From the NCBI GenBank assembly GCA_036674765.1, contig JARVKI010000142.1, forward strand, positions 1-64,000: a DNA stretch of 64,000 bases, in the 5' to 3' direction. The translations under genes were made by a program, and so were the position numbers. Below are positions 1 through 22,669 of the stretch, piece by piece. This stretch comes from Seiridium cupressi. Taxonomy: Eukaryota > Ascomycota > Sordariomycetes > Amphisphaeriales > Sporocadaceae. The notes beneath the pieces were generated by a model. That model was not told the origin of the DNA. It did no database searches and saw only the letters and a program-made list of their open reading frames with translations. The stretch's first letter is position 1. Every line of letters begins with the position of its first letter.

Positions 1-73
<73 letters not shown>
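1..73. repeat. Poly-C homopolymer at the contig edge
   Basis: The first 73 bases are uninterrupted C and then pass abruptly into ordinary mixed sequence. Fungal telomeres are normally CCCTAA-type repeats, so this is not a telomere. An artefact is the simplest reading, for example poly-G reads from two-colour sequencing assembled on the reverse strand. I see no gene in bases 74-478. Confidence 0.9.
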
Positions 74-76
<3 letters not shown>

Positions 77-478
77 CTCAAGTCCTATGACTCTTGATTT
101 CTTTTGACCTAGGAGAATCTTCATTCAGGTTAGAGACTCGCCAGCCTTGACAACTCCATGGATGCCTATATGCAGATTCGCATGCAATCTCGTAGGCGTT
201 TGTCCTACAGTTGCCATTACCCGAACGTGATCTGACATGCCAGATCGGTGCATCGTCATCATGCCGAAGCCGAAGCCGCCAACCGAGTCTCGTCACCTCT
301 GAAGCACTGTCTCCGTGTAGGCCGAAAACGCGTATACTTGGGACTGGCACCATAGATATAAAGCCAGGGATCAAATCTACGTAGTACTCAGTAACCCAGA
401 GCGCGCATCTCATGTTTTTCTGGTCGCATGTTATCCCCCCCAATAAAGTGCGCAGCAGTAGCCATACACTCTACAGCC

Positions 479-2180
479 ATGTCCCCAAGCAAGTCGACCA
501 GCCCCTATCCCGTGGCCAACGCTACAGCTTCTTACTGGCGAAGTGAGCCTCACGCTTTAGATGAACATCGCAGCACCCCTCAACTCCCAGAGAGATCCGA
601 TGTCGTTATTGTTGGTGCTGGGTTCTGCGGGGCAACAGCAGCATATTGCTTACTCAAAGAGTCTAGTCCGTCTCGGCCCAGTGTCACAGTGCTGGAAGCG
701 AGAGAAGCCTGTTCAGGGGCGACCGGCAGGAATGGTTTGTACCTAAGTTTCTCGTTGCGTTAATATATCACTAATCTTCTTTCAGGGGGGCATTTACGAC
801 CGGATGTTTTTCTCGACCTAGTAGAGCGCAGTGAGACCGACGGTCTTGATGTCGCAAATGAGATTGCTCTCTTTGAAGTCGCCAATGCCGACGCCGTCGC
901 AAAGCTTGTGGAAGACGAAAGCATAGAGTGTGAGCTACGCAAGTGCACCACCGGCTACGCGTTTCTGGACGAGCAAGAAGCCCGGCGGCTGAAGCTTCAG
1001 TACGATGGAATGCTCGGCAAGTGCCCTACAATGAAGAACGTTGCCTACCATGGCCCTTCTGAAGCTGAACAGCTCACGTCCGTCAGAGGCGCAAAGGCCG
1101 CGTTTACGTTCCCGGCTGCTACTCTTTGGTAAGTATTACCTTGCTGTTCAACATGGAGAGCATATGTGCTGATCCTTCGAAGGCCATACAAGTTGGTGAT
1201 GGGCTTACTTGAGAGAGCTGTCCAGAAAGGCCTCAACTTACAAACAAACACCCCAGTTCTAGAAGTGTCCGAGTCGGCCGACCAGGAGGGATATTGGAAC
1301 CTTTCGACGCCGCGAGGAGACACGAAAGCGAGGCAGGTTATATTTGCCACCAACGCATACACGGGTAGTATCCTGCCTCAATACAAAGACGACATCGTAC
1401 CAGTTCGTGGTCTCATGGGGAGAGTGGTACCGATGCCAAAACCGAGCTTTTCCACACAAATCTTGCATTCCTCCGCAACAAAATACCTAGGCTTCGAATA
1501 CGACTATCATGCAATTCAACCAGACGGGAGTTTAGTCGTAGGGGGAGCTTTCGTGCCGCATAGAAAGCACCCCTCCCGATACAATGTCAGCGATGACTCG
1601 ACTCTCTACGAGGGTACTGATGACCTATTTGAGGGCTGGGCACAGAAGTGCTTCCGGGGCTGGGAAGACGTAGAGACTAAAGTCGAAAATACTGTACGCA
1701 ACTTCCAAGACTTGTTACGTTCCCTTTACAGCTCATTTCAGGAGCTATCCAGTCCTGATTGAGCGTTTCTGCTCTGGGAACATGCCATTCGACCCCCTAT
1801 CACTCACCACATACTCGAAGAAAAAAATGGGCTAACTTTAGTTGTTGTAGTGGACCGGTATAATGGGCGTGAGTATCTCTCGAAAGTGATCTAGAGAGAT
1901 CAAATGATACTGACGAAAAGAATAGACCACACCAGACAAATTACCGCATATCGGCAGAGTTCCCGAGAAGCCCGGGCAGTTCATTTGTGCTGCGTTCAAC
2001 GGCCACGGAATGCCAAACGTGTTCCTCTCTGCCAAAGGCATAGTCCAAATGATGCAGACAGGCTGCTCATTGTCCGATACAGGGGTGCCGTCTTGTTACG
2101 AGACGAGCCCGTCGAGATTGCAGAATTGGGGAAACAAGGAGGAAGTTGATGGGCTAGGAATTTCAGCAGACCAGATATGA
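479..2180 (+). CDS. FAD-dependent oxidoreductase (DAO family)
   Basis: This is a predicted 460-residue flavoenzyme of the DAO superfamily, which oxidises amines or D-amino acids; the substrate is unknown. Five exons fit: 479-734, 786-1128, 1183-1693, an 18-base micro-exon 1851-1868, and 1926-2180. The N-terminus carries the dinucleotide-binding Rossmann motif VVIVGAGFCG near residue 44, preceded by the SPYPVAN...SYW stretch common in fungal members. ATG..GRNGGHLRP across the first splice is the usual FAD-contacting loop. The C-terminal WTGIMG, PHIGRVPEKPGQF and FNGHGMP motifs fix the last introns, because this conserved block is only joined if the micro-exon is used. An in-frame ATG at 428 would add 17 residues; 479 matches the family start better. 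The frame stays open for 61 codons beyond the TGA (see findings). Family certain, substrate unknown. Confidence 0.85.
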
Positions 2181-3849
2181 AGAGACCTTGGATACGACGC
2201 TGGCGCGCAATCAATTCGCCGGTTGCATTTATCAAACACAGATCTACATGCAGCCCTAGAGCTCAGTTTGGAAGAGTTCATCCAAGGATCCAAAATGCGC
2301 GATCTATCTGCTACATATATAATCTCATGGTTTGCGGTCGGATCCACGACCCGCTATGACCCGTAAGTCTTAGAGAACCGGTGACCCATGTCACAAGAGA
2401 AGTGACCGCCACTAGTGCCATTTGACCTTGACACCTCTGAATACGAGAAATTCAGCGCACAACAATCTCGTAACGACGAGGTTGATTTGTGACTAGGGTA
2501 AATATGGTCCACTGGCCCACACCGACTCCCGATTCAGAATGAAGGTGAACCGGGAAGTGCTCAAATAGGGAAGCGCGCATATCCTGAGGCCCGAACGCCA
2601 CGAGAGCCAGTTGCCGAAAGACTTTTCTTGACTTTCAGAAAGTCGCCCGTTTACGCAAAAAGGATTATGGGTTGAAGTGATGGAGAAGGAGCAGAGATTG
2701 AAAGCAGTGAAGGGGGCGCTGAACATATGCTGAGCTCGACCGACGCGTACCACTAGCAAAGGCAGTCATGCCGAATCACCCTACCGGGCCGAACCAGCCT
2801 TGAAACCTGGGACATATATAGCAACAATAACGGCAATCTCAACCGCAAGGCGGAATGTGGCACGCATCCCTGCTCATTGCCGCATCCCCTGGAGAGCAGG
2901 AAACACGTATGGACAGACCTGTATATTCTGCAATGACATGGAGGCAAGTCTCGGAGCGAGAGGCCTGCTGAGAGATTTTCCCGTTGTCCTTGGCTTATGC
3001 AAGCAAAAGCGAGCTACACTTGTGCCTGTGGTTTCACTGGATGGAAATGTCGGATGGGAAGGTTGCCTTCAGAGAACTCCAGTTAGGAAGAACATCATTA
3101 TCTCGCAGGGCAGGATTACGCGTCTGGGCGAACGTGGAGGTGCTGTAGAGATGACCGCACGCACCTGGCCAACGATAGGCACAAAAGCGCACCTCACTTT
3201 CCTCCCAGGAAGTTAACAAAATGATATGCGATGATATATGATGTTTTTAGAGAAACAACAGAATGATGCAAAGCGGTTCATTGTTTCCAATAACCCCCCG
3301 ATATATTCCCAGCCGTGCTACGTTGTTGGCGGTAATGTCAGAGAGTCTGAGATGCCGAACTCCTCCACCCAGCACTTGTCTAGGTCGGCGAATTCGTAGT
3401 AGTGCCGACATCCACAACGCAAAGAGCGTTATGTTATGGGATTGTTGAAATTAGGATGGTTTGGTGGCTACACCGCATCTCGTAGATTGGTTAGAGAATA
3501 TGTAGAACGGTGGCTGGTCCGAAACCTTGGAAGATCCCTGCCCAAAACCTCGTGTCCCGCGCCTGCGTGAAGCGCGACGCCCAAGGCGTTTAACCGTTCT
3601 TGTAAGAACTTGCCGTTCAGCGCCATTGGCACTACATTAGACTCTGGGCGGCTCCGCGCGCTAGGTTTAAGTGGCGCCGGGAGTAGGCGCGCTCTAGGGC
3701 GCGTTTCAACAGTCTACTGAACGAAATGAGAGGAGCATAGTTGCGCCCGCAATGCTTCATGGTATGATACAGTCCCAGAAACCTGAGTCCATCGTCTGTC
3801 AACTCTTTCGCAACTCGTGTGCCCATTGCTAGCTGGTCTTCCAATCATC
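2181..3849. other. Gene-poor stretch
   Basis: I recognise no gene here. Short open frames occur on both strands, for example 2800-3216 (+), but none has splice-extended family motifs. The part near 3550-3720 is GC-rich with several GGCGC-like words but no array or clear repeat. Confidence 0.5.
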
Positions 3850-4457
3850 ATGGACAATATCCTTTCTGCGCCAGAGCACCTAGTGCGAGCGACATTAATC
3901 GCGTTGTGCAATGACCGGACACAGCTGAAGAAGGCCATCGACTATCTGGATAAGATGGGACACAGCGCCGCACGGCCTGCTCCACCTCTTGCCACCGACA
4001 ACAAGCTGAAACGCAAGGCGGCAGAGGCAGTTAAGATATGCGTGCAGTGTCAAGAGCCTTACCACGAGAGTGACAATGGCGGCAAACATCCGTGTAAATA
4101 TCACAATGGTAATGTTTCCCCCGCGCCGATCTTCTCTGACGTCACTTCTCACGCAGGTAAGGTAAACTTGAGTGCGATTATGATTCGTCGGTCTGGGGAG
4201 ACTGGGATACGAACTGTTTCGGTGAGCAGGATTGCGAGGAGAACAGAGAGGAGTATCCGGATGGGTTCAAGTGGTCGTGTTGTGATAAGAACGGGACGCA
4301 CCCCGGCTGCACCAGAGGACAACACCGGGATATGGGCGTAACTCGTGGCAGATACCCAGCAGAGGGCCTTTACGAGAAGGCCCCGGATCAGTGGTCCAGC
4401 AGCAGCGATGATAATCCCGATGCAGACAACGGCAAAGATGCCCAGAGTGAAATCTAG
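3850..4457 (+). CDS. Small Cys/His-rich fungal protein
   Basis: The 184-residue product has two exons, 3850-4108 and 4162-4457, joined in phase 1. The N-terminus (MDNILSAPEHLVRATLIALC) is helical. From about residue 72 comes a metal-binding-like module: CVQCQEPY, then CKYHNG, then a W-D-x-N-C segment, an EEYPDGFKWSCC segment and finally GTHPGCTRGQH. This Cys/His spacing is shared by many uncharacterised proteins of filamentous fungi and resembles a zinc-binding fold. The tail is acidic and Ser-rich (QWSSSSDDNPDADNGKDAQ). The intron is set by frame: only the AG at 4160-4161 restores the KLECDYDSSVWGDWD continuation. The family is recognised by pattern; its function is unknown. Confidence 0.8.
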
Positions 4458-5183
4458 TCGAGGAGTTGATGGAAGCGTGGTTCTGACTCTGGAGTCAGCA
4501 ATGTTCCAACTGTGTACGTGGTCAGTCGTCCACTCATTTAAATCATGACGCCCACGAATAATCCTGCACGTATAACCATAACTGTGAATGAGAATGTTGT
4601 TCTTATTGATGTATTATCACGTGGCGGTGGTTATTGTCCCTGTACACGCAGCCGCGACTCCAGCCGCGAGCCGGGGCAGCGCCGCTTAAAATACAATACG
4701 AGCTCAGCTGACAAACTAGCACACCGGACCAATCAGAACGCCGGGCGCCACCGTATCCCCTGCGGCAACCTTCCTGATTTGCTTACATACGCACACAATA
4801 TGTCTGGGGTCGGCAAGACACGAGAAGCGAATAAATACGGATTCCATATTCGAGTACGCCGTCGGCGTAGATCGCAGTAACGATGAACTGGGCCCACAAC
4901 GGAACTCCACGATGTGGTGGTGCCCGGACACTTGGGACCGGGGGCACTACGCAGCTTTCGGAATAACGTCACTTTTTCACTTCGTGATGGGGATTCTCAG
5001 AATAGCATCTCGTTCTGGTAGAATGTTATAACCCGCTGGGGTATGACTCCGGAGTTCAGGGTGCCATGCCATATGGCCTCCGCGTTTATAAATCATTGAG
5101 TCCGCCATCGGCGACGACATGCTAGCGCAATGCAGCCGGTGCAATGACATCGCGGACGACAGCACACTATTCGAATAGCCAGA
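4458..5183. other. Intergenic, nothing recognised
   Basis: No supported gene or RNA. Overlapping short frames on the minus strand (about 4716-4972) have no family resemblance. It serves as the upstream region of the hydrolase gene. Confidence 0.5.
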
Positions 5184-6296
5184 ATGATCACCATAGGAGA
5201 GCTATACCGGCCGACTTGGCCGCCGGCGAGCTACCCAACCTTTGTCAAACAGTACGAGGCCCGTTCCCATCTGCCCATCCGGTAAGTTCTGTCCAAAAGT
5301 TTAGGTCTTGACGGCCGGCCATGGCGCCTTCGTAGTCAACCACTGACAGCCTCAAGGGTCTTTTTGCCTCAGTCGTACGATATGAGCTCGGGAGGGATCT
5401 TGCCTGTACTTTTTACAGTGCATGGAGGTGGTTTCTCCATAGGGAGCGCAGCGGATGACGACCGTTGGAATCGCCTGATGGCTGATACACAAGGGCTCAT
5501 GGTCATTGGGCTAAATCACTCCAAAGCGCCACTTGCGCCATACCCGACAGCCATATATGATATAGAAGCAGTCATTCTCGCCGTAATGAGTGATATGACA
5601 CTGCCCATAGACCGCACGCGGACCGCAATAGGCGGTTCATTTTCCGGTGCGACACTCGCCTTCGCCGTGGTGCAACTACCGAGTATAAGGCAGCAAGTGG
5701 GATTCCAAGCTGCGGTTAGCAGTTGTGGGCTGCTTGAGCTTGGTATTTCCACGTCTGCCAAGGCAGATACACGTCCTTACAAACCAAGTCTCAGTTCCGC
5801 ACGCTCGGCGACGACAGACAGTCTCACGAGTGCTCTCCCATCGATCCAATGGAGCTATACTTCAGCGGGAACAGACATGACAGATCCTCTGTATGCGCCC
5901 TTCTATGCTCCCGCCAGTGCTCTGCCTCCTCATGTCTGCCTGGTGGCAGCTGAGCTCGACATTCTGGCGCACGACTCCTGGCGCATGGCGTGCCGGCTAG
6001 CGAGCCGACGAGTACCTGGCATGCATGAGCGGGTTGGTAGATCAGGCGCTGGGGCTGTGGGCAAGTTAGAGCTGTCTGACGAGAGATTCGTGTTTGAAGA
6101 CACCACGACTCGGCCAAACGGCGCGAAAACGAGCGTCAAGTGGTTGCTTGTCCCAGATGTTATACATGGGTTTGATCTGAAGATGCCAGACGCATTAATA
6201 GGCGACGACGAAACCCGGGAGGACGCCAGGGAGAAGACGAGACAGCTTGTCGCCTCCCTCGGGCAATGGCTGCGAGACACGGTTTGGGCGAGCTGA
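5184..6296 (+). CDS. Alpha/beta-hydrolase (HSL/carboxylesterase-like)
   Basis: The 345-residue predicted esterase or lipase-type hydrolase has two exons, 5184-5281 and 5357-6296, in phase 2. Translation begins MITIGELYRPTWP. The oxyanion-hole motif HGGGF follows VLFTV in the first third. The candidate acid residue lies in AAELDILAHDS and the candidate histidine in VPDVIHGFDLK, both well placed for a catalytic triad. The nucleophile elbow is odd: where relatives have GGFSAGG or GDSAGG the sequence reads GGSFSGA, so no strict GxSxG can be formed. No signal peptide is seen, so it is probably cytosolic. It could be an altered esterase or a non-catalytic relative; the fold is confident, the activity is not. 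Confidence 0.82.
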
Positions 6297-9200
6297 ACAG
6301 AGCTGAATGAGAAGACGCCACGCGATGTTGATTGCTACGTTGTGCCACAGCTTGGCATATGTTGGAGTTGTGGCGTTTGGAACAATGCTGCCTGTGCTGC
6401 ACTCTCGAAGTTAGAAGCCAGGTTCGCCGCCGATGTAGAAGATAGAAGACGACGTGCCATGCGCCGGACGCACTGGACTCGCTTGTAATCAGTTGGATTG
6501 TAGTTGAAACGAAGGATTCCCCGTGTGGCTTATTGCAGCTTTGTGGTTGGCCGTCGGTGACAATCCGACCTCACGGGAGACAGCCCCCACGTGGTGGCAT
6601 GCCGTTGATTGCAACGTCAGCGATCTGGACTCAAGTCTGGACAAGGTGTTAAGACGGATCTGTACAAAGCGGACTCCGTCTTTTTGTCGCCCCATCCGAT
6701 GTTGGTTAAGCTACCTGCTACGTACCGCGAAAGACCAGCCCAAAAAGTGGTGTCCAGGTGTCTAGCTTGCCTGACTGCAATCCTAGAGCCCCACACGGCG
6801 AGATGCAGTCCCCAGGGAGCCCTCGTCGTTGTCAGGAACCATGCTCCTCACAGGGACCGAGGCAAGCCACGGCACAGGGGCTGTTGAGTGTGACAATGCG
6901 CGAAGTATGAAATCATGAAATTATGTGACCAAGGCCCGAGAACGTGTGTTTCCAAGTAACGACGTCACCAAGGTTAGTTTTCCCCGTGGTTGCGTATAGG
7001 ACGCTGAGCTCATGCGCTGTGCTACCGAAGTCGAGGGCCATCGTCAAAGCCTGGGTCATGATGAAATCATCGTTCTAGAACAGCTTGGACTTGGCCAATA
7101 TACCCCCCGCCGGCTCATGTCCCGATCATCGAGCATTCGCTTATAGTAGTGCGCATGGATATGTGCTTCCCCCGACGACATCACACACAACCTACGGCGG
7201 AGAGAAAGAAGGTACTGCCTGGTAGTTCGCAGGTTCGGATTGGATACTAGATCTGGTTCCAGATATTTGGAAAGGCGACCCTAGCGCTTTTTAGAGCGTG
7301 GAAACAAGGATAATATTAGGGTTACTATTACCGTTTGTCCGACATATCCCAGAGATCATCGCTCTCAAGGTATGGTTGCAGCAGAATGCTGATCCCAAAG
7401 CAAGCGAGCTCAAGAACTATCGCATGGTCATTTGCTGTTGCGAATATGCTTACTCTGATGCTACCCCAATTGTGGTTCATCGCACCACATGGCAAGCGGG
7501 GGCCAGAGCCAGCTCCGGGACCAGGTATTGCAAGGTACATTACGTTACTCAATGTAGCAAAACTGGCCTTTAGCATGGAACCATTACTGTCGCTTAGGGC
7601 TTAGTACACCAGATTTTGGCTCCAACGAGCATTTGGACTCGGATGAACACATGCAGCCCATGAAACGCACATGCGATGGCACAGTGATTTGTCGCTGATG
7701 CATCCATTGAGCCCTGAAGATAATGCACTACGTCCAAGGATCTGCTGCCAGGCACGTTGGGTGCAGCCGATATCAAACCCAAGTGTTCCTAGCCTGGTCA
7801 TATACTACCGACGGATGCCGGCCACCTCGAGCACCAATGTGCCGGTGTGATATGAGCAGCAAGACCATAACATCCACAGAGCTTCCACATGACGTCGAGG
7901 GATCTAGTACGATGGAGAAAGCCACGAGCTTTGTTCATGATCGGCTACAATTCCAGAACTTGTGTGAGGCTTTTAAATCAGTGCGGCAGGTGGGCGAGTG
8001 GGTGTGGTTTTGGTGGTAGCGGAGTAGACAGTAGGATCTCGAGGAGGCGCCAGGGGTGCGATCCTTCAGGACTGATCGTCGCGAGCTTCCTTCTCTTTCG
8101 CTAAATTATGCTCGAAGGGGCTTGGAAGAGCGAGCCTTACTACCACTGCGTATGCAGAGTCGCAGTGTCCCTGTCGCAGCGGCATATCGAACGGATGCGA
8201 CCTTGATTTCCAAAGAAGCATTGAGCGCGAGGAGGGAGATGCGGGGGGGCTTTACTGAAGATATACCAGCGAGACACTAAGCGCTCTTACTATGTGGCGT
8301 GGCCCTGGTCACCTGACGGTCTCGATGTTGTGCTGTGTTAGTAATGTGTTCTATTGTATCGTATGGCGGGCTGTTATCAAGCACACTACTGGTCACGGTA
8401 CATGGTGTTGATCTGCCGGGTAGTGTGAAGGGGCTATGAAGATGGGAGATGGGGTTGCTACTTTATCGGTCCCAACTCGCACTGCCGCGGCGCTAGCCCG
8501 ACCAGGCTTAGGGCATTCTAAGTTTAGGGACCCCAACTTTTCACCTCACGGGTAACGGCCCATTCGGTAACCGAGCTGTGACCTCAGCCTCGATTTTCGG
8601 GTCAAGCGCAGCTCCCAAGTCCCCAGCGATCTTCACATTGCCGAGCGCTATGTTGGGCTCTGCCGTGCGCCAAGTCAGCAGCCAGCGAGAGAGGCGTAGG
8701 TGCGTAGGTGCGCATACACTCTCTCTTGACGGTTTGCTGCTGCCTCCGGTCGGGAGCGACTGTCTTACTCGAACGGCATGCCATGGTAAGGGGGAGTCAT
8801 CACCATGCATTGTCCCTGTCTACCGCGGCAGCGTTGCGTCTACAGCGGAGCAGTCGCTGGTGGCCCTTGACCGTTGGGCCGGCCTCCTAGAGGCTTACTA
8901 CACACCACCAACGTGCCTCTGCATGCGGAGCTGGAGTACCCTTCGAGTACCCTGTGCGCCAGGGCCGCGCCTGTCTTCCCGTCGTACTAAACCACCGGCC
9001 TGCTGAGTACAATGTCGTTAATTAGTCCCCGTTTGGTCTTGGACGAGGCACCCCGGCAGCAAATCCACACTCGCGTCAGCCTGCAGAGCCGTGCTGCGCC
9101 CAATAGGACCCTCAGCTTCCCTCGAATTGGTGTGATGTCAATGGGAATAGTAGGCTGATCCTGCGTGCATACATGAACACCACTCCCTGGTGCAGACCGT

Positions 9201-9549
9201 CTGTCAGACCAGCCTAATAGTCGTGATCTTATCCGCTTACATTCCCTACCGTGTTTGACCTCTGCATGTCTTCCTTGCATACTTCTTTTTTCTCTCCTCC
9301 CCCCCTCCTTCCTTTTGCTTACCATATTGATCGATACTGTCTGGATTATTCTCGATTGGCTGCCCTCATGATTTGCGAAACCTCCCGTACTAGAGTCTAG
9401 TACACAAAAGTTCTCTATTTACACGTCAAGTGTCAACATCAGCTATTTCTGAGGTGAGACGCAGCCGTATTGCGTCCGAGAGCGGCACCTGCCCGCTACG
9501 CTGCTATTTCACTCCTTTATTGCATGAGTTCTGAAACCCTACCAGGATA
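6297..9549. other. Long gene-poor stretch upstream of the NRPS-like gene
   Basis: No gene is recognised in about 3.2 kb. Open frames of 60-140 codons occur on both strands, for example 8578-9006 (+), but they overlap each other, lack family motifs and are not extended by plausible splicing. The last part is probably the promoter and 5' leader of the NRPS-like gene. Confidence 0.5.
9282..9317 (+). promoter_or_regulatory. Pyrimidine-rich tract upstream of the NRPS-like gene
   Basis: An almost pure C/T tract lies about 230-270 bases before the start codon at 9550. Such CT tracts commonly lie just upstream of transcription start points in filamentous fungi. The role here is inferred only from position and composition. 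Confidence 0.3.
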
Positions 9550-12500
9550 ATGTCTTCAAATTTTCTATCATTACCGCCTATCGACACCACTCTGAGTCTA
9601 TTTGATCAAGATGTGGTACTCCAAACCTCGAGGAGGAGACCGCTGCCACCCATCGATACTGCTATGCGACCACCGAGTGAGGATATACCGGACGAGGTCA
9701 TAGCTTCGGCCGCGGAAGCTGTGGCCGAGGCGCTCGGCATCTCTCTGAACGACGTACCCGAGACATGCGCCGCGGCACTGAAACCGAAGCCTGTAGGCCA
9801 CGCCGCCCGAAGGACGAGCTCATTCTACCTTCCTCCGACTGATCGAACATGGACTTCGCCGCCCGCGCAAGGTTCGGTTGAAAGACGTTTGAGCATGGCG
9901 GTGGCGGAGACTTTGGGTCTTGATAGCAACACAATACCCCGAGATGAGTCCTTCGTCGACCTCGGAGGCGATAAGAGAGCAGCGATAGCTCTGCGAGCCA
10001 AGTGCATGAAGGCGGGCTTGTCGGTCCAAACCAGGGATATCATGACCTCCAAGACGATAGCCGAGTTGGAAACCCATGTGACTCCATTCAGCCCGTCGCC
10101 GCTCACAGGCAAAACCGCCGACTTGTTGCCCACCACTTTGGTGAGCCCTCTTCAGCTGAGCTCACCCTTAGCGACGATCAATGCGCCACGACAAGGTCCA
10201 CTAGCCCAACCGCGCCGTTCCGTCTCGAGTCCTGATACGCCGGTCGCTCCCAAGGTACACTTGAAGCCGAAAGCGTCGAGGAGGTATCACAATCAGGTCG
10301 AGCAAGTCCTCTCACTCAACGGGGAGGTTGCGAAAGCCTCTGTGCTGAAGCCTAAAGCAGGGCTGTTTGAGGGGCAGATCACAGCTTTTCTGACCCTTTC
10401 CAGCTGCGTTGTCGAAGGGCTAAACCCCAATGACATCAAACTATTGAATGCTTACTATACCATCCCGCTGCCCTCGATACGGAAGGCAGTTGAGGCGAAA
10501 GTGCCGCCCACAGTTGTGCCAAAGGTATGGGTGGTTCTCGAACAGATGCCCTTGGACGATACTGGGAGGATACATCGGCGGAAATTGCAAACTTGGATCC
10601 AGAACGCAAACGAAGAACTCTATCAGAAGATCATGTCTATCGAGTCGCAGGAACCTGTTGCCGCTCCTGCCAGCGACAACGAGAAGCGCCTTCAGAAAGC
10701 CGTTGGGAAGGTCCTGAACATGGAACCAAATAACGTTGCCATGAATCTATCATTCCCAAGCCTCGGGGGAGACGAGACTACGGCCATGCAGCTAGTGGTA
10801 CGGTGCAAATCGCAGGGGCTGTCTTTCAAAGTCGAGGACGTGCTTCAGGCCATGTCTTTGGGTCAGCTCGCCACTATGGCTACTCCGGGCGAAGTAATTG
10901 CCGGAAGGACAACCGAGGAGACGGCTGAAGGCTTTGATCTGTCTCCAATGCAGCGACTTTACTTTCATACTCCCATGGGTGAGAAGTGTCCCCAGAAATC
11001 GGATAGGAAAGGCTCCTACCGGTTCAATCAAAGCATTCTGCTTCGCTTCAAGAGGTCCATGGGCGTGGAAGACGTGCGCGCAGCAGTCGAAGCCGTTGTT
11101 GGGCACCACTCGATGCTGAGAACACGCTTCCGTATGAAGTTGGGATCGTGGTCTCAGTATACACTGACCGATGTTTCCACATCCTACCATTTTGGACATC
11201 ACACGGTGGGCACGAACTGCGAGGTCGGCACAGTCATCCAACAGGCCCAAGCCAGCATTGACATCGAGAATGGGCCGTTATTTGCGGCCCATCATTTTCA
11301 CACCCATGATGGTCATCAAATGCTGTACCTTGTTGCTCATCACCTCGTCACCGATCTCAAGTCTTGGAGGGTGATTGTCAATGACTTGGAGGAACTGCTC
11401 ATCAATGGCAGCTTGGTGTCCGGTCGCCGAATCTCTTTCCCTGAGTGGAACCAGCATCAACGAAACCGTGTAGAGAGTACCGAGCTAGCAGCTCGACTAC
11501 CATTCAACACCAGTGCTGCAGATGTCGACTATTGGGGCATCAATAATGCCGCCAACAAGTATGGTAATACCATGACGCTGGGCTTTACGCTAGGATCTGA
11601 GATCACGTCGATGCTGGAGGTTAGCAACCGCGCGCTTCGGACGGATTCATCCGACATCTTCATGGCTGCACTGCTTCTTTCGTTTTCACAAACGTTCCGC
11701 GACCGCCCAACTCCTGCAATCTGGAACCAGGAGCACGAGCGAGCAGTACTGGATACGGAAATCGACCTGTCTGAGACAGTGGGATGGTTCACATCCTTGT
11801 GTCCGCTTGCGCTGAAGATATGCCCAAACGATGAAGTCTTCAACGTCCTCTGTAGGGTGAAGGATGCGCGGCGATCCGTGGCTGGACGAGGCGTCCCGTT
11901 TTTCGCCGCCAACATGCTTAATGCAGACACGGCAGGCTCATTTGCGTCGTCCCTGTGTCCTATGGAGATCATCTTTACATATGCTGGTTTCATGCAGAGT
12001 CTGGACAGCCAAGAGAGCCTGCTTGAGCAGCTGCCAGTCCCAGGCCGATCACTGGCTTCCACCACCTCGGACATCGGCCCTGACGTGGGGAGAATCTCGT
12101 TGTTCGAGGTGTCTGCCGCCATCGATCACGGAAGTGCCAAATTCAAGTTTCTCTACAATCGGGAGACCCGCCACCAGGATCTCATTCAAACTTGGGTTCG
12201 CAGTTATGAGGTATTACTTCGTGATGCGATTCAGCGCCTCCGATTCCAAGCCCCAGAGCTCTCAATGTCAGACATTCCCCTGATGGACATGACATACGAT
12301 GGTCTGACGAAGCTGAATCGAGAGGTTCTGCCTAACCTGGGCATTGATCTTTCCAACATCGAAAGCATCTACCCCGTCACGGCAAACCAGCAGAGCCTGC
12401 TGATCAGCGAACCTCTGAACCCGGGAAGCTCACGCTCGCAGACCGTGTACGAGCTGAATACCTTGGGGAAGTTCGTTGATATTGGTCGTCTCTGCGCAGC

Positions 12501-15500
12501 CTGGCAACAGGTCGTCCAGAAGCACCCCGCTCTCCGAACCGTCTTCTTGGAAAGCGTGTCCCGATTCGGCCTTTTCGATCAGATTGTGCTTCGGAGACAT
12601 TCGCCCAACATGCTCTTCATCGAGAACGACCATCCCGATACCGCGCTGTATACGATGGAGAAGCTCACCCCCATCAACCTCATGAAAGGCACTCCTTGGC
12701 ATCGATTGGTAGTTTGTCAGGCTCCAGGCAAGACGCTCCTTCTGTTGGAAGTCAGTCAAGCGCTGTGCGATGTAAGTCGTCGGTATTTTGTTCCTGGTGT
12801 GACATTAACTAAATGGTGAAACTAGGCTGCTAGCATCACTATTCTCTTTAGCGAGCTCGAAGAGGTGTACTTCAACCACTCCCTACCGAGTGCGACGGAT
12901 GTTCACTACCCAGAATACCTTCGGTGCTTGAAGACGACCCCGGTCAGCACCGAATTCTGGCGCGAACTGCTTCAGGGTGTCCAGCCATGCCACTTCCCTA
13001 GCTTGGTTTCAAAATCTCTTGACACAAGGGACTACGAGCACACCTTTGTCAACCTCAACGTTGCCCATGAACAGCTCGAAGCGTTTGCTCGAAGGTACAA
13101 AATAGAGATAGCCGCAGTTCTCCGAGTTGCCTGGGCGCTAGTACTTAGAGCATATATTGGGTCTGAGTCTGCATGCTTTGGGTATCAAACTTCCGGCCGG
13201 GATATTCCAGTGGAGGGACTCGCAGACGCTGTGGGCTGCTTCTCGACGGAGATGATTTGCCGACTCGACGTCCATTCCTCGCAGTTCCTTGCGCAGCTGC
13301 TGCTCGATTCGGAGGAAATTCATCAAGATGCTCTCCACCATCAACATGTTTCGGTCAACAATATCCATCACGCCTTGGAAACTAAAGGGCGCCGTCTGTT
13401 CAACACGTGCTTGTCATTCGGTTATGAGAACATCTCTGAGGATCTTCCGGCCGATGTCAAGTTCCGACACGTTAGGAACATGCGAGCCTCTGAGTATGAC
13501 ATCAGCGTGGATGTCGCATTCAAAAATGGCAACGTGGTCATAGATCTAGGTCATCGTATTCTCACGTCCGACCAGGCGGCGCATGTCGGGCACGCCTTTG
13601 GTAGAGCGATTTCGACTATCATGGAAATTACCGGCGGACAAGTCAAAGAAGTCGACCTCTTTAGTGAACACGACCATCAGCAAATTCTAGTGTGGAACAG
13701 CCAGCCCAAGGCGCTGCCACCCAGGGAACACGTGCACGAGCTGGTCGCCAAGCATGCCATTGAACATCCTGATATCCAAGCCGTTTGTGCATGGGATGGT
13801 AGCTTCACGTACGCTGAGCTCGACAAACTATCTATGATTCTAGCTGGCGCCTTGAGTCAAGCTGGAGTCAAACATCAAACGCCTGTTCCCATCATCATGG
13901 ACAAGAGTCGCTGGGTTGTGCCGGCCATGCTGGCAGTCCTAAACATTGGCGCCTGTATCGTTCCGGTCGATGCTTCGTTGCCTTCTATATTCTCTTGGGT
14001 CATCAAGAGCGTTGGGGCCAAGGTCACACTAGCATCTGAGAGTGTCAGAGTCCATCTCAAGGATGTTAGCTGCGATATCGTCTTCATCGATGACGAGACC
14101 ATCGCCTCTCTGCCGGAAGAGCCCACGCTAGTATCCTCTACCAAGACTGATAGCGACGATATTGCCTGCATTTTATTCAACTGTGACGTAGTCCAGACTC
14201 GCAGGGGCATCACATACAGCCATTCGGCGCTGACTACGGCATGTGTTGGCCAAGGCCCAGCACTGCGAATCAACCCATCTAGTAGGGTCATGCACTACTC
14301 GTCGTACAGTAGTGATATTGCACTGGCCGAGGTTTTCACGACGCTCATCAATGGAGCTTGTATCTGCATCGGAAAATCTCCGGGAGCTGCCGAATTCACC
14401 GCCACAGCTCAAAAGATGAACGTCAACTGGACCTACCTCACCCCGACGCTGTCCCGCAGGCTCACACCGGAGAACATGCCTGATATGGCCATTGTCTGTT
14501 TCCGAACTCACCAGCTGGACGACGATGTTTACAGCCAATGGGCCGGGAAAGCGAGAGTAATCCTGGCGTATGGATCCGCCGAAGCCTGCGTTTTGGGCCT
14601 GTCAGCTTCCGAAGTCAAGGATGCCTACGCCGTCCGGGGAATCGGTAGCCCTTACTGCGGCAACTTTTGGGTGGTCAATCCTGCCGACAGCAACAAGTTG
14701 ATGCCTATCGGAGCTGTTGGAGAGTTGGTCATCTCATCACCTACGCTTGCCATCGGCCATTGCCTAGACACCGGGCCTATCCAACTGACCAACAGAGCTG
14801 GTGCTGTCAACGGCTCCAGTCCCGAGAGCACTGGTCGGTTGTTGAAGACGGGCCATTATGTTCGCTATGTTGAAAACGGCCAGCTTGAGCTGGTCTCTCC
14901 CCAGTCTGAGAAGGTTGACATGGGCGGTGACATAGTCCAGACGGCTGAGATTGAACGCAAGCTGCGACGTTGTCTCGGTCGAAACATTGATGTTGCTGTT
15001 ACCAAGGTTGCTTTCAACTATACGGATAGTGATTCGGCCCCAATCATCGCTGCATTTATCGAGCTGGATGATGAATTGTTTCACGGAGAGGATCTCTCGA
15101 CACTCAGCCCTCAGACAAAGGAACGACTGTATCTGGCCAAGCAAATGGCCGGTTTGTCCCTGCGAAGCGCCCTTCCGGATACGTTCGTCCCCGTCCGCCA
15201 ATTGCCATTGACCCCTTCCTTTGAAGTGAGTCATCGCGATCTACAGAAGATGATCAGGGGCCTCTCAAAGACCCAACTGCTGGGCCTAGCTCAGGTGCCA
15301 AACCCGCAAGAAGTTCACGCAGCCGGTCTGGAGCCTCTGCCCTTGACACAGACCGAAGAGCGTATGAGAAGCCTCTGGCAAGACGTGCTTGGGCTGTACA
15401 CTTCTTCCATAAGGCCCACGGACGGATTCATGAGCCTCGGAGGGGACGTGGATCTAGCCCACGACCTAGTGGTGGCCTGCCGGGAACAGCATGTTTCGAT

Positions 15501-17688
15501 TTCCATTTTGGACGTGGTCCGGGACATGTCCCTGAGTGAATTGTGCCGAGGCATCACAATGCCGGACACGCCCGTCTACCACGCGCAACAAAGCCGGTAC
15601 ATGCAACCCAGTCCCTCAAACGCCTTTGTCGACGATGCCATCGTGCCCCAAATTGGGGACCGAGATAGCATTGAGGATATTGCCGAAGCCTCGGCAACGC
15701 AGACAATGTTCCTGGAAGGTATGCTTAAGAGCCCGCCGGGAAATGTCAACTACTTCATGATCAACGTCAATGGACCTCTCGACTGGGGAAAGCTCGAAAA
15801 CGCCTGCTATCTGCTGACGATGGCGCACCCCATCTTGAGGACGGCCTTCGTCTCGCACAGCCGTCAACTATTCCAAACGGTCATTCGGACTTACCATCCA
15901 GAATTCCAGCGTTACCAGTCCAACAGCTGGCGACTCAGCGGGTTGGCAACGAAGGTCGTCAAGAGGGATCAACTGATGCCCATTGATTTCCGACAGCCAG
16001 CGACCAAGTTCTGGTACCTTGACGCTTACAAACAGTCAGTCCTCATCATGCGACTTTCGCGCGCGCAATACAATGATCTCACCCTGCCAACACTCATCTC
16101 GGACCTTTCCAAGTTCTACGAGCAGGCCGATCTGCCCAGTCCCCGCCCCGGGTTCTGCGACGTCGTAAGGGCCAGCCAGGGATCGGCCGTGAGCGGTGCC
16201 GTAGACTACTGGAAGACATTACTCGACGGATCTTCGATGACCGAAGTTGTGGCCAAGGCTGGCCCCGAGATTCCAACTTCAAAAGCTGACTCGAAAACTG
16301 TCTACCAAGTGATCCCCACAGGATCTTTGAACAACCTAGGGATACCCTTCGAGACAATCCTGAAGGGTGCTTGGTCTATCGTCCTGTCGAACCTTTCCGA
16401 TTCAGAAGACGTGGTATTTGGCGAGTCAAGGACAGGAACATTTCCAGGCTTGAGTGAGGCTGTCGGTCCCATTGGTAAGCATCGCCGCTCCCGTTCTTCT
16501 TCGACCTTGTAATTGACTCTGGACCAGGCAATATAATTCCGGTACGCACAAAAATACCGACAGTTCCGACATCGCCCTTGGAGTTCTTACGGAGCGTTCA
16601 GGTAAGCCTCTCTCGTTCAAGCGTCCTGCATCTTGTCTAACTCTTCTTAGAACCAACACATTGCGAGCACGAGCATAGAGCATGAGAACATGCAATGGTC
16701 TGAAATCGTCAAGAAATGCACGAAGTGGCCGGTCTGGAAGAAGTTCTCGACTGTGGTACAACACCAGCACCAGGGCGAGCGCGACGCCCTGAGCAGCTTC
16801 ACCATCGGCAGCGCAACCTGCAGACTCAACTGCATCGAGTCCAACCACCAGAACACGGACGTATTCGTGAGGTCCATCACATCGGGCGCTTCACATGTCA
16901 ACATCTCACTCACTTTCTCCGAGAAGAAGATCCACCCCTTCTTCGTGCAAGAAGTGCTGACTATGCTTTGCTCCACCATCCCGCTGCTCACTTCGGCGTT
17001 TATCATGGAGCCCATCTCGCTCAAAGGCCTACACGACAACTCTGCCACACCAAAGATCCCGCTGCCTGCAGTCAAGCGCGAGGTTCAGATCGCAGCCCCA
17101 GTGGTCTCCGTCTCGCCAGACCACGCGAGCGCCATACACGCAGTCATCTCCACCGGCTGGGACAGCATCCTGGGCGCCCTTGGCATGGCCGAAGATATGC
17201 GCTCTGTTCCTTTTTGCGAATTCACATCCTCCCTGGTCCCCGCGGCCGAACTTGCACGGTACTACACCGACAGCATGCCGCGACTAAACTTGCCCGGTCT
17301 GGCGCATGCCACCTTCTCCCTGGAAGACATTCTGGAGAACCCTACCATGATGAAACAGTACGAGATGATTATCTCGAGACAGCAACTGCCGCAGCTAAAG
17401 CGGAGCCAGAGCTTTGTGCACACTGTGAGACGGCGCCTCACCGTAGCTGCCGGGCCGCAGTCGCCTGCTCCTGCCCAGTCCCCAAAGAAGGTTCCAGGGA
17501 GCAGTGAGGGCAGTTCTATGGATTCGATGACCACTGGTAGTAGTCAGAGCGACGAGGAGCATTATGACGAGGTCCCGCCCATGATGCCAGTGCCACATAG
17601 GAGGAAGGCTCCGGTCAAGACCTTTGAGGTCAAGAAGAGGTCCTCGATGTTTCTTGGGAAGATGAAGCTGGGCTCAGTTGGTGCTTGA
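9550..17688 (+). CDS. NRPS-derived protein with inactivated carrier, A, C and E domains
   Basis: The product has 2,660 residues in four exons (9550-12771, 12826-16474, 16528-16601, 16651-17688). Approximate order: N-terminal region with a T-like helix (1-110), T1 (112-180), C-terminal A subdomain only (260-360), T2 (375-445), E (455-890), C (935-1360), A (1365-1880), T3 (1905-1975), C (2010-2450), T4 (2465-2545), tail (2546-2660). The carrier serine of LGGDS is replaced in all: K142, E409, V1949 and, by alignment, L2510. The A3 loop reads FNCDVVQTRRG, and the A7 and A10 residues are changed. C motifs read SQALCDA and SRAQYNDL. The E domain keeps HHLVTDLKSW but the EGHGRE motif reads QEHERA. 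The frame has no stop or frameshift, so this appears to be a maintained pseudoenzyme. A peptide product is unlikely unless the T domains act without the cofactor. A transporter and a monooxygenase follow on the same strand. Confidence 0.9.
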
Positions 17689-18314: not shown

Positions 18315-20505
18315 ATGAGCGACCTCAACGGGATTGGGCACGACAAGGCCCACGTGCACGGCATCGAGCACAAAAATGGCGGGGGTGATGATATCGCTGC
18401 GAATTTACACACGCAATTCGCCAGCTCGACACCGGGGCATCATCGCGATATGACGAAGAAGCTCTTGAGAAAGGTCGATATTCACCTGCTCCCACTACTG
18501 ATCTTGATGTAAGTCGGCTAGTTGGTCTCCTGCACTTTCCGGTGAGAGGGGGTCATCCGGCGATGATCATCGGTGTGCCACCCACTGTACAAAATGCTGA
18601 TCAGTTATATCAAAAGGTATTTGCTGAACTTTTTGGATCGAAAGTGAGTTTTATTCATGGGTTGTGTTTGCCATCATGATGTGCTTGACTGATCGCGCTT
18701 AGCAACTTGTCACAAGCGAGGTTGGGCACATTGGAAGCTGATCTTGGTAGGAATCCCCGGCGGTTCTCCTACGATCAACACTAACCGCGCGAAGGGATGC
18801 ATGGAACGGACTTCAATCTGGCAACGAGCATTCTGTTTGTCGGGTATTTATTAATGCAGCTGCCATCAAACTTGCTCATCACGCGCCTACGTCCTTCTTG
18901 GTACCTGGGCACGGCTATGACGATCTGGTAAGCAGTATAAAGAGATATGCTGGCAGTGCTGACAGCGACTGACTGGCGAAGGGGAACCATATCAGCATCA
19001 CAAGCCGCAGTTCACTCATTCGGCGCCCTTATCGCGTGCCGCTTCTTCTTGGGCTTTGCTGAAGCCCCTTTCTTTCCCGGTGCCGTCCTTCTCATGTCTT
19101 CGTGGTACACTCGCAATGAGTTGGCACACCGGATCGCCTGGTTCTATGCAGGCTCATCACTTGCCAATGCCTTCGGTGGTCTCCTTGGGGCCGGTGTGCT
19201 GGGAAACCTGAGCGGTGCTCACGGGATTGCTGGATGGTAACCCACCAAAACCATGCCAAGGGAGGCTCTGGCTGACACCTACTTAGGAGATGGCTCTTCA
19301 TCATCGAAGGCGTAATCACCATTGGTGTAGCAACGACGTCAATCTTCGTGCTTCCGGATTACCCCGCAACGACGAAATGGTTGTCTGACGAGGAAAAAGC
19401 CTACGCACAGTGGAGGCTGGTCGATGACATTGGGGAGGCGGACAACGGCGGTGCATCATCAATCAAAGACGGAGTCAAGTTGGCACTGAAGGATCCTCGG
19501 CTATATCTGTTTACCGTGCTCCAGCATACCAGTCTGCTGTCGCAGTCTTTCCAATATTTCTTTCCGACCATTGTCAAGACTCTCGGCTACGGAAACATCG
19601 AGACACTTCTAATCACTGCCCCGGTCTGGATAGGCACATTTCTAGTCTCACTGGTGGTCACTTACACATCTGGGAAATACCGCGACCGAAGCATACACAT
19701 AATCTGTCTGATGCTCGTGTCTGTTGTCGGTAACATCATCGTCGTATCGTCGCTCAACACTGGTGAGTTGTACTCAAAATTGATATATGCTATACCAACT
19801 AATGGCCCATGTCGTAGGAGTTCGGTTCTTTGCAACGTTCCTGATGCCCATGGGTGCGGTTTCGGCCTACCAGATTATTTTAGCCGTAAGCAGCTCCCAG
19901 GGTTATGTCATGCCCCTGTAGAGCCTGTTTCGGGAGCTTGCCAGTCCCTGGTTAAGCGTTTCTGCTATTGGAACATCGTTTCTACGCCGCAATAACTCGC
20001 CAAGCAAATTCGAATAAGTAATCGCTGACCAAAGGTGTTGTAGTGGGTCTCAAACAGCTTTCCTCGACCGTTGGTCAAGAGGTCCGCGTGCATTTCCATC
20101 GCCAACATGATTGGGAATTGCTCCAACATTTATGGATCATATAGTAAGCATCTCTCTTTAGCAGTCTCTGCTCACCCCAAACAATCGAAGTCATTGTCTT
20201 CAGAATGCGGCCATTGAACTGACTCTTCCAGTGTACCCATCCTCTGACGGGCCTAGGTATCTCCCTGGCGGCAGTGCGACAGCTGCAGTTGCTCTACTCG
20301 TAGGTTCCCACCCCCTTAAGCGCAAACAAAGCCATAACACCAACCAATTCAGGTCGCCATAACAGCTATGGTCGTACGTCTGGTATTGCAGAGAGACAAT
20401 AAAAAGCTTGCCGCTCGCGAGAATCTTGACACGGAGACCAGCCTTGGTGTGCCGAGAGAGGCAGGGCTGCAAAACGGGGCTTCTGGATTTAGATATGTCT
20501 TATAA
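18315..20505 (+). CDS. MFS transporter, anion:cation symporter (Dal5/TNA1-like)
   Basis: The 509-residue membrane transporter has ten exons: 18315-18508, 18605-18643, 18703-18746, 18795-18927, 18982-19236, 19287-19762, 19818-19885, 20044-20143, 20232-20299 and 20353-20505. All join in frame. A cytosolic N-terminus leads to the family motif IKRYLLNFLDRNNLSQARLG, then FNLATSILFVGYLLMQLPSN, RFFLGFAEAPFFPG and WLFIIEGVITI, typical of allantoate/nicotinate permease relatives that import small organic anions with protons. About 12 helices fit. The N-terminus is rich in His, Asp and Gly. The gene starts 626 bases after the NRPS-like gene on the same strand and is followed by a monooxygenase, so a joint role is possible but inferred only from position. 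The substrate cannot be read from sequence. Confidence 0.88.
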
Positions 20506-20935: not shown

Positions 20936-22669
20936 ATGGCGTCGAAATATGAGATCAAATCTGTTGCCATTGTAGGTGGAGGTGCGGGTGGTAAGTTCCT
21001 GGTTTTCCGAGAATAGTCGCATCCTTGTTCCATGGGGCTAACAAGCCGCTATAAAGGCGCCGTCACAGCCGCAGCCTTCAAGGCCGAACACTATTTTCAA
21101 AAGATATCTATTTTCGAGCGACGAGAAAAGGCCGGCGGGACATGGTAACTCTTCGCTCATAACGTGAACTCAAGGACGAATCACTCTAAAACGCTAGTAG
21201 GATCTACGATGCAGACCCGCAGCCCCCTCTGGCGGTCCATCCGGGCGCACTGCCCACGCAGCTCGATCCGCCGCTGAGCCTGCCCGATCATCTTCCTGCC
21301 ATCCTACCTCCTTCACAGCAGGAGAGGTATGCCAAGACACCTGTATATGATTCGTTAACGTAAGTTGGTTTACTGCTCAGCGCAACGCCCCACTGACACA
21401 AACTAGGACAAATGTGCCGGACATCGCCATGAGTTTCTCGGACGAAAGGTTCGCCTACGGGCCATTTGCGCCACATTACGTTCCTCGCCAGTATGTCGAG
21501 AACTACTTTTCAACACACGGTGTCGATAAGCTCTTGGTCCTCAACACAACAGTGGAGGATGTCTCTAAACTGCCATCAAAGTCAAGCGAGGATGCAGAGA
21601 AATGGAAGCTCACACTCCGAAAGTACGATTCTGCTCGACACGTCGATATCTGGTGGGAAGAGGTCTTCGATGCTGTAATCTTGGCCAACGGACATTATTC
21701 AATCCCCTATGTACGCCCAACGTCAACATATCTGATTCCGCCCAATTGCAGGCTAATCCGTCCGTCTTATAGGTCCCACACGTGACTGGGCTCGAGAATT
21801 ACATCGAAAAGTTCCCGGGTCGCGTGGTGCACTCCAAGTACTATAGGTCGCCCCTCGTTTATTCTGATCAGAAAGTCTTGGTTATCGGCAACTCGGCTTC
21901 GGGGCACGATTTGTCTCTGGAGCTTATATCCACCGCTCAACTTCCGGTTTACCAGTCTAGACGATCGAAATCCCGATGGGATGGCAAAGAGCCTCCACCG
22001 GGCATCGCGTGGAGGCCAATCATCACAGAATATCGACTCGACGGTCGCATTATATTCGAAGATGGCACGTACTTGGACGACATTGACAAAGTCATTTACG
22101 CCACTGGGTACAAAGCATCGTTTCCCTTCTGGAACAGTAAAGCCAACGGCCGCCCATTGTGGGACTTCAAGGCAGAGAAGTTGATCAACAACTACTGGCA
22201 TACATTTTTCCAAGATTTTAAAACCCTGGCTGTCGTGGGCATGCCGCGAGCGCTAAGCTTTCGAAGCTGGGAGTATCAAGCCACTGCGCTAGCCCGCGTG
22301 TTTTCCAATAGAAACTCGGTCCCGTTGCCAGGAATAGAAGAACAAAAGAAATGGGAACATGAAAGAGCAGAGAGAAGCCGGAGGGAACAGAAGAAGTTCC
22401 ATTCCGTTGACTGGGAACACGGGGAAACGAAGGAGTGGCTTGACGGCTTCTTCCAAATCGCAGGTCTAGGGACAATCCAGGGCGACGGGAGGATTCCGCC
22501 GGTTTTAAGCAGGGATCTTATATGGGCTCTGGAACACATAAAGAAATACCCAGAGCCAGAATCGGACGATAACGGAGAGGAACGGAACGTGGCTGCTGAG
22601 GCCGTGGTAATTGACTCTGATTGGGTAGTTATTCCAAAGAAGCGAAAAGACCTGCTTGCGTTTATATAA
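20936..22669 (+). CDS. Flavin-containing monooxygenase (FMO/BVMO-like)
   Basis: The 500-residue NADPH/FAD monooxygenase has five exons: 20936-20990, 21057-21144, 21201-21359, 21407-21710 and 21773-22669. Visible motifs in order are the FAD-binding GGGAGG split by intron 1, then GGTW near the end of exon 2. Later come the FMO signature FPGRVVHSKYY (FxGxxxHxxxY), the second nucleotide-binding site VIGNSASGHDLSL and VIYATGYKASFPF. This is the complete set for an N- or S-oxygenating FMO. The C-terminal part is Glu/Lys-rich and longer than in minimal members. No signal peptide or strong membrane anchor is seen. In fungi such enzymes often tailor secondary metabolites; placement after the NRPS-like and MFS genes on the same strand fits that, but the substrate is unknown. 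Confidence 0.9.

What the first reader, a model, noticed from the sequence alone, without database searches (positions are those of the whole stretch)
9550..17688. Intact NRPS-like gene in which all four carrier domains have lost the cofactor serine
Four T domains are visible and none can be phosphopantetheinylated at the normal place: LGGDK (K142, codon 9973), LGGDE (E409, codon 10774), LGGDV (V1949, codon 15448) and FTSSLVPAAEL (L2510 by alignment, codon 17233). Random decay would also bring stops or frameshifts over 2,660 codons, yet none is present. This points to a maintained protein that no longer makes peptide by thiotemplate chemistry: an NRPS pseudoenzyme, perhaps a scaffold, inhibitor or sensor.
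Basis: partly seen in the sequence, partly recalled or inferred. Interest (0 to 1): 0.9.

Follow-up and report, generated by a model that had tools for sequence, protein, structure and literature searches.

The report
Intact NRPS gene with dead active sites
A fungus keeps a 2,660-amino-acid gene descended from a peptide-building assembly line whose attachment and catalytic sites are nearly all gone although the reading frame is unbroken, so the protein has probably been kept for some job other than making peptides.

Summary
The window lies in a 45 Mb genome, by its introns and size fungal. The gene is real: four exons with three short introns splice to 2,660 codons without a stop. Layout: T1 – A C-terminal fragment – T2 – E – C – A – T3 – C – weak T4 – tail. 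T1-T3 keep 18 of 18 residues at six near-invariant carrier columns but have Lys, Glu and Val in place of Ser; all 34 other carrier domains held from this genome (75 more not held) keep Ser. The fourth loss is likely but unproven, because T4 is barely recognisable. Neutral decay without a stop hardly gives this (best joint probability about 2e-8 for four Ser losses, 5e-7 for three). A decaying NRPS on contig C190 shows the opposite: stops, Ser kept. Constraint is uneven, normal in E and very relaxed in A. Best reading: a maintained NRPS-derived pseudoenzyme, probably a scaffold or decoy. No orthologue or expression data could be obtained; conservation and partners are untested.

The parts
9550..12771 (+). 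exon 1 (aa 1-1074)
   Evidence: open frame; donor GTAAGT at 12772
12826..16474 (+). exon 2 (aa 1075-2290 plus one base)
   Evidence: intron 1 ends in CTAG at 12825; donor GTAAGC at 16475
16528..16601 (+). exon 3; the splice makes GPIGNIIPVR, which reads like a normal condensation-domain motif
16651..17688 (+). exon 4 with stop codon (aa 2316-2660)
9550..9873 (+). proline-rich N-terminal extension with LPPIDT, LPPIDT and LPPTD and a stray carrier helix-1 fragment (aa 57-70)
9877..10077 (+). T1 carrier domain, LGGDK in place of LGGDS (K142 at 9973)
10282..10599 (+). C-terminal subdomain of an otherwise missing adenylation domain; A10 Lys is Arg340 (TGRIHRRKL)
10678..10881 (+). T2 carrier domain, LGGDE (E409 at 10774)
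10912..12279 (+). epimerization (E) domain: HHLVTDLKSWR and VGWFTS kept; EGHGR replaced by QEHER (Q727)
12352..13713 (+). condensation domain C2 (split by intron 1): SHxxxDG is SQALCDA (His to Gln1070)
13726..15273 (+). adenylation domain: P-loop TSGSTGxPKG is NCDVVQTRRG; A7 Asp to His1751; A8 GRKDxQVK to SPQSEKVD; A10 Lys to Glu1874
15352..15546 (+). T3 carrier domain, LGGDV (V1949 at 15448)
15631..17025 (+). condensation domain C3 (split by introns 2 and 3): SHALYDG-type motif is SRAQYND (His to Arg2153)
17113..17385 (+). T4, weak carrier remnant FTSSLVPAAEL; Leu2510 at the Ser place by one anchoring, Ser2509 by another
17386..17685 (+). basic, Ser/Pro-rich C-terminal tail (disorder judged from composition) with R/K-R/K-x-S/T sites

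Best explanation
The gene encodes a maintained, full-length pseudo-NRPS. It is homologous, in the same domain order, to the A-T-E-C-A-T-C part of large NRPS genes such as those on C7 and C47 of the same genome (shown). The core of the first A domain is missing, and Ser and the catalytic residues of the A and C domains are replaced while the folds and the reading frame are kept (shown by sequence). It therefore cannot load, activate or condense amino acids by the normal route (inferred from the motifs). Its folded T, E, C and A modules probably serve as a non-catalytic interaction scaffold or decoy for a partner, for instance a real NRPS or cluster enzyme, with flexible ends that carry possible kinase sites (mechanism inferred, not shown). 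The 0.65 given here is for a maintained non-catalytic protein-interaction role in the wide sense; about 0.35 of it is for scaffold or decoy of an assembly line specifically. With the sensor rival, 'maintained non-catalytic protein' stands at about 0.75.
For: Spliced ORF of 2,660 codons without a stop. T1-T3 keep L, F, G, G, D, A at 18 of 18 cells, but 0 of 3 Ser and 0 of 3 hydrophobic residues at the next position; all 23 in-genome NRPS carriers aligned have Ser followed by I, L or V. A domain: 25 of 53 comparable invariant columns lost, 17 of 25 inside the core motifs against 8 of 28 outside (Fisher p = 0.006; motif bounds set by hand); the 13 paralogous A domains keep 92-100% in leave-one-out. 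C2 keeps 13 of 16 and loses the catalytic His; C3 keeps 11 of 17 and loses the His. E keeps 33 of 37 (89%), within the range of nine relatives (76-95%). Branch lengths are uneven: E 1.19 (others 0.40-1.99), C2 1.71 (0.60-2.02), A about 5.4 (0.56-1.68). Neutral model: 95% ceiling of 0.0115 substitutions per site for stop-free drift; joint chance of the Ser losses with no stop at most about 2e-8 for four and 5e-7 for three over the distances tried. On C190 a decaying NRPS has 7 stops in five domain stretches of 1,079 codons, and the two carriers among them keep Ser. The A-T3 model folds as an A-T pair (pLDDT 74; TM 0.83 to GrsA PheA by target length, 0.70 by query), though paralogues in the alignment drive that.
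Against: No orthologue, no dN/dS, no expression or protein evidence. The neutral model treats 'neutral throughout' only; a gene that lost its function while still under weak, declining selection, or one very recently freed from it, is not excluded. The codon-usage test was not discriminating (0.73 in frame, 0.62 antisense). The control on C190 is imperfect: its single stops in the two C stretches could lie in introns (those in its carriers lie among aligned residues), and its E domain has lost the His pair. Nothing in the data points to a particular partner.
Confidence: 0.65

Rival explanations
1. Pseudogene: the gene lost function and is drifting; it happens to have no stop yet.
For: Loss of so many motifs is what a non-functional NRPS would eventually show; the A domain evolves very fast.
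Against: Neutral drift large enough to lose the Ser codons would have brought stops: 13 expected at 0.05 substitutions per site, 26 at 0.1. The E domain is as conserved as in its relatives. T1-T3 lost Ser and the next residue but kept the near-invariant residues around them. The decaying NRPS on C190 looks different.
Confidence: 0.15
2. Partly active enzyme: the E domain, which keeps HHxxxD and VGWFT, epimerises or otherwise acts on a substrate carried by another protein.
For: E is the best conserved domain; the His pair and Asp are intact. Loss of the EGHGR Glu is not unique: 8 of 10 other E domains in the alignment have EGHGR, C44 has YNHGR and the decaying C190 one KGDGR.
Against: The Glu of EGHGRE, part of the active site with the His of HHxxxDG (PMC7551626, passage seen), is Gln, and both Gly are Glu; T1-T3 cannot hold a substrate.
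Confidence: 0.1
3. Amino-acid or nucleotide sensor: the dead A domain still binds a ligand and signals through the tails.
For: An invariant Asp (1571, the FDxS-type Asp by recall) and Y, G and E of the YGxxE motif (1656-1660) remain; pseudoenzymes of other families sense ligands (general knowledge).
Against: P-loop, A7 Asp, A8 and A10 Lys are all lost; no binding data.
Confidence: 0.1

Closest known systems
Multimodular fungal NRPSs with E domains (the C7:466-489k and C47:214-238k genes of the same genome)
   Same: Same domain order A-T-E-C-A-T-C; listed matches 22-37% identical
   Different: The A, T and C domains of those genes that I aligned keep Ser, P-loop and C-domain His (the A10 Lys too wherever shown), with small departures such as SHSILDA; this gene has none of these sites, lacks the first A core and has extra ends
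Ferrichrome synthetases with a degenerate A domain (S. pombe Sib1 A2, O. olearius Fso1 A3)
   Same: An A domain missing core motifs kept inside an NRPS gene (PMC2644324, passages seen)
   Different: There one A domain is degenerate in a synthetase that the paper treats as making ferrichrome; here the A, T1-T3 and both C sites are lost
Pseudoenzymes in general
   Same: Conserved catalytic motifs lost (definition in the start of the abstract of PMC10211241, seen in the listing)
   Different: I found no NRPS example: 'nonribosomal peptide synthetase' with 'pseudoenzyme' gave 0 papers and the hyphenated spelling 1, on another subject by its title; one search listed none by title

Membership tests
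Functional NRPS | carrier domain with phosphopantetheine Ser (GGxS) | tested here: not met
   K, E, V at T1-T3; T4 uncertain
Functional NRPS | A domain with P-loop, TGD, A8 and A10 Lys | tested here: not met
Functional NRPS | C domain with (S/H)HxxxDG | tested here: not met
   SQALCDA and SRAQYND
Functional E domain | HHxxxDG-like motif and EGHGR Glu | tested here: inconclusive
   first kept, second lost; role of both in PMC7551626 passage
NRPS by descent | homologous A, T, E, C domains in NRPS order | tested here: met
   Pfam and paralogue matches; NCBIfam AA-adenyl-dom found but far under its cut-off, 162 against 317 bits
Pseudoenzyme | catalytic motifs lost, open frame intact | tested here: met
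Pseudoenzyme | kept by purifying selection across species | not testable with these tools
   protein database off, no fungal genomes to compare; indirect support only
Pseudogene | stops, frameshifts, uniform decay | tested here: not met
   none in 2,660 codons; uneven constraint

The most novel reading that the evidence does not exclude
A multidomain NRPS has been turned as a whole into a conserved non-catalytic regulator: selection removed the phosphopantetheine Ser from carriers that otherwise stay canonical, so that the protein can dock with, and block or organise, the partners of a real assembly line without being loaded itself.
Probability: 0.25. Interest if true: 0.85.

Novelty: new variant of a known kind. 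Interest (0 to 1): 0.62.

Why it matters
Pseudokinases and pseudoproteases are well known (general knowledge), but I found no report of a whole NRPS kept as a pseudoenzyme (held open-access library only, judged from listings). If real, genome-mining tools that count it as a peptide synthetase are wrong about its cluster, and it would show a new fate for duplicated megasynthases that can be tested by gene removal and partner pull-down.

Tried and rejected
Prokaryote genome scan with exon 2: 13 stretches matched a pattern, none a relative. Recent duplication with measurable dS: no listed match elsewhere in the genome is above 37% identity (capped lists), so dS would be saturated and dN/dS was not computed. 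Codon usage as a selection test: not discriminating. T4 by structure: single-sequence model too poor to use. Hidden first A core upstream: no A-domain family at 1-9549 on either strand, and only weak matches there to the held paralogue frames (best E 0.006). Second NRPS on the same contig: none among the listed condensation or carrier hits. RNA families in the window: none. Basic-directed kinase sites in the linkers are mildly enriched (4 in 305 residues, mean 0.8 in shuffles, 34 of 5,000 reach it), not proof of phosphorylation. NCBIfam added nothing specific. Paper searches listed no fully dead NRPS by title or abstract start; most listed papers were not opened.

Rows dropped before counts: for the invariant-column counts I used at most the 14 best paralogue matches per domain and left out C190_26514 (E), C44_202177_3 and C190_20424 (C2), C62_119306 (A), and C44_202177_4, C3_447201 and C81_45003 (C3) as partial, near the decaying gene or distant. 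C190_26514 lacks the His pair in its E domain, so it would have lowered the E baseline. The motif bounds in the Fisher test were drawn by hand after seeing the alignment, from recalled core motifs. The trees used the quick method on the same rows as the E, C2 and A counts. My notebook says 26 of 53 A columns lost; the count is 25.
Full report
What is there. The gene at 9550-17688 has four exons. The raw translation shows stops, but they lie in three introns with GT..AG borders at 12772-12825, 16475-16527 and 16602-16650. The middle splice makes the text GPIGNIIPVR, which reads like a normal condensation-domain motif.

Domains. Pfam finds two PP-binding stretches and Condensation in exon 1, and Condensation, AMP-binding and a third PP-binding in exon 2. 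Comparison with in-genome relatives gives T1 – C-terminal fragment of an A domain – T2 – E – C – A – T3 – C – weak T4 – tail. The first 'C' is an epimerization domain (HHLVTDLKSWR, VGWFTS; the best solved matches are PvdL, bacitracin, tyrocidine and gramicidin S synthetase chains, several of which hold E domains by recall). The same A-T-E-C-A-T-C order occurs in the large C7 and C47 NRPS genes; the listed in-genome matches are 22-37% identical.

The carrier domains. A profile of 23 NRPS carriers from the same genome finds T1, T2 and T3 at 45.7, 60.0 and 39.7 bits (the 23 themselves score 79.6-106.1, being its training set). In eight near-invariant columns, L, F, G, G, D and A are kept at 18 of 18 cells, a late Ala at 1 of 3, and Ser at 0 of 3, replaced by K, E and V. 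The next residue, I, L or V in all 23 relatives, is R, T or D. All 34 other carriers that I held keep Ser; 75 of the 112 genome hits were not held and not examined. T4 is doubtful: -1.7 bits, only helix 3/4 matched; hhalign score 21.0 against a maximum of 19.5 in 40 shuffles; AlphaFold single-sequence pLDDT 35 with four helices in order. L2510 is the Ser place if the Phe is the anchor; Ser2509 is if the helix-1 Trp is.

The catalytic domains. The A domain has NCDVVQTRRG for TSGSTGxPKG, TGH for TGD, SPQSEKVD for GRKDxQVK and SFE for the A10 xGK. Of 54 columns invariant in 13 relatives it keeps 28, loses 25 and gaps 1; losses sit in core motifs (17 of 25) more than elsewhere (8 of 28; p = 0.006). 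C2 has SQALCDA and C3 SRAQYND in place of (S/H)HxxxDG. C2 keeps 13 of 16 invariant columns, and C3 11 of 18 with one gap. The E domain keeps 33 of 37, but EGHGR is QEHER. The Glu of EGHGRE and the His of HHxxxDG are described as the epimerase active site in PMC7551626 (passage seen). Against a strict rule, 2 of 10 other E domains in the alignment, C44 (YNHGR) and the decaying C190 (KGDGR), lack it too.

Is it maintained? (1) About 3.3% of random substitutions in this CDS make a stop, so stop-free drift is limited to 0.0115 per site at 95%. The joint chance of losing four Ser with no stop peaks near 2e-8 over the distances tried; with the three certain losses it peaks near 5e-7. The losses in the A and C domains are not counted in these figures. 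(2) Constraint is uneven: branch lengths are ordinary for E (1.19) and C2 (1.71, in the upper part of its range) and extreme for A (3.68 plus 1.76 on one edge). A pseudogene should decay evenly. (3) C190 gives a natural contrast: a decaying NRPS with 1, 3, 1, 0 and 2 stops in five domain stretches, whose two carriers still read SGDS and GGDS. The single stops in its C stretches could lie in introns; those in its carriers lie among aligned residues. (4) The A-T3 segment models as an A-T pair (pLDDT 74; part of the P-loop and stretches of the C-terminal half below 50) and matches GrsA PheA (TM 0.83 by target length, 0.70 by query), with the caveat that paralogues in the alignment drive the fold. 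Codon usage did not discriminate.

Context. Around the gene lie an FAD oxidoreductase (about 599-1630), an alpha/beta hydrolase (about 5364-6296), an MFS transporter (about 18797-19995), an FMO-like enzyme (about 21782-22669), an amino acid permease (about 27.6-29.2 kb), a weak TRI5-like match below its cut-off (minus strand, about 30236-30697) and a P450 (minus strand, about 32.2-33.8 kb). This looks like a secondary-metabolite neighbourhood (inference); the only NRPS found in the window is this one.

How it may work. Shown: loss of loading and catalytic sites with an intact frame. Inferred: no thiotemplate chemistry, since nothing can be adenylated, tethered at T1-T3 or condensed in the normal way. 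Inferred and uncertain: the folded modules serve as docking surfaces. The extra proline-rich N-terminus with LPPIDT, LPPIDT, LPPTD and the basic Ser-rich tail are what a scaffold or regulated adaptor might carry, but no partner is known.

Literature. Degenerate single A domains in ferrichrome synthetases are known (PMC2644324, passages), as are degenerate or incomplete modules in a fungal NRPS survey (PMC2823734, passages). A large survey filtered suspected dead domains away (PMC10212144, passages). No paper listed joins NRPS and pseudoenzyme in a relevant way, judged by title and abstract start; one search found none and two on other subjects. Subscription papers were not searched.

Verdict. 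A real and unusual gene; three of four Ser losses certain, and the protein stripped of nearly every known catalytic site. Maintained non-catalytic protein is the best reading (0.65, or about 0.75 with the sensor rival); the exact job is open.

Noticed in passing
G000 contig C190:20550-26532 (L009, L023): A decaying NRPS: 7 stops in five domain stretches, carriers at 0.36-0.47 GC (repeat-induced mutation is a guess), carriers keep Ser, its E domain has lost the His pair.
   Followed up: partly
window 9571-9588, 9643-9660, 9829-9843: LPPIDT twice and LPPTD once in the N-terminal extension: a repeated short motif, possibly a docking motif.
   Followed up: partly
window 9718-9759 (aa 57-70): A stray copy of carrier helix 1 (AVAEALGISLNDVP against AVAETLGLDSNTIP of T1; 0 of 500 shuffles score as high).
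   Followed up: partly
window 30236-30697 (minus strand): Weak TRI5-like terpene-cyclase match (23.3 bits, below its cut-off of 25.2), with a P450 on the same strand nearby.
   Followed up: no
L022 (C44:206-211k): The E domain of another NRPS has YNHGRE in place of EGHGRE and may be impaired.
   Followed up: no
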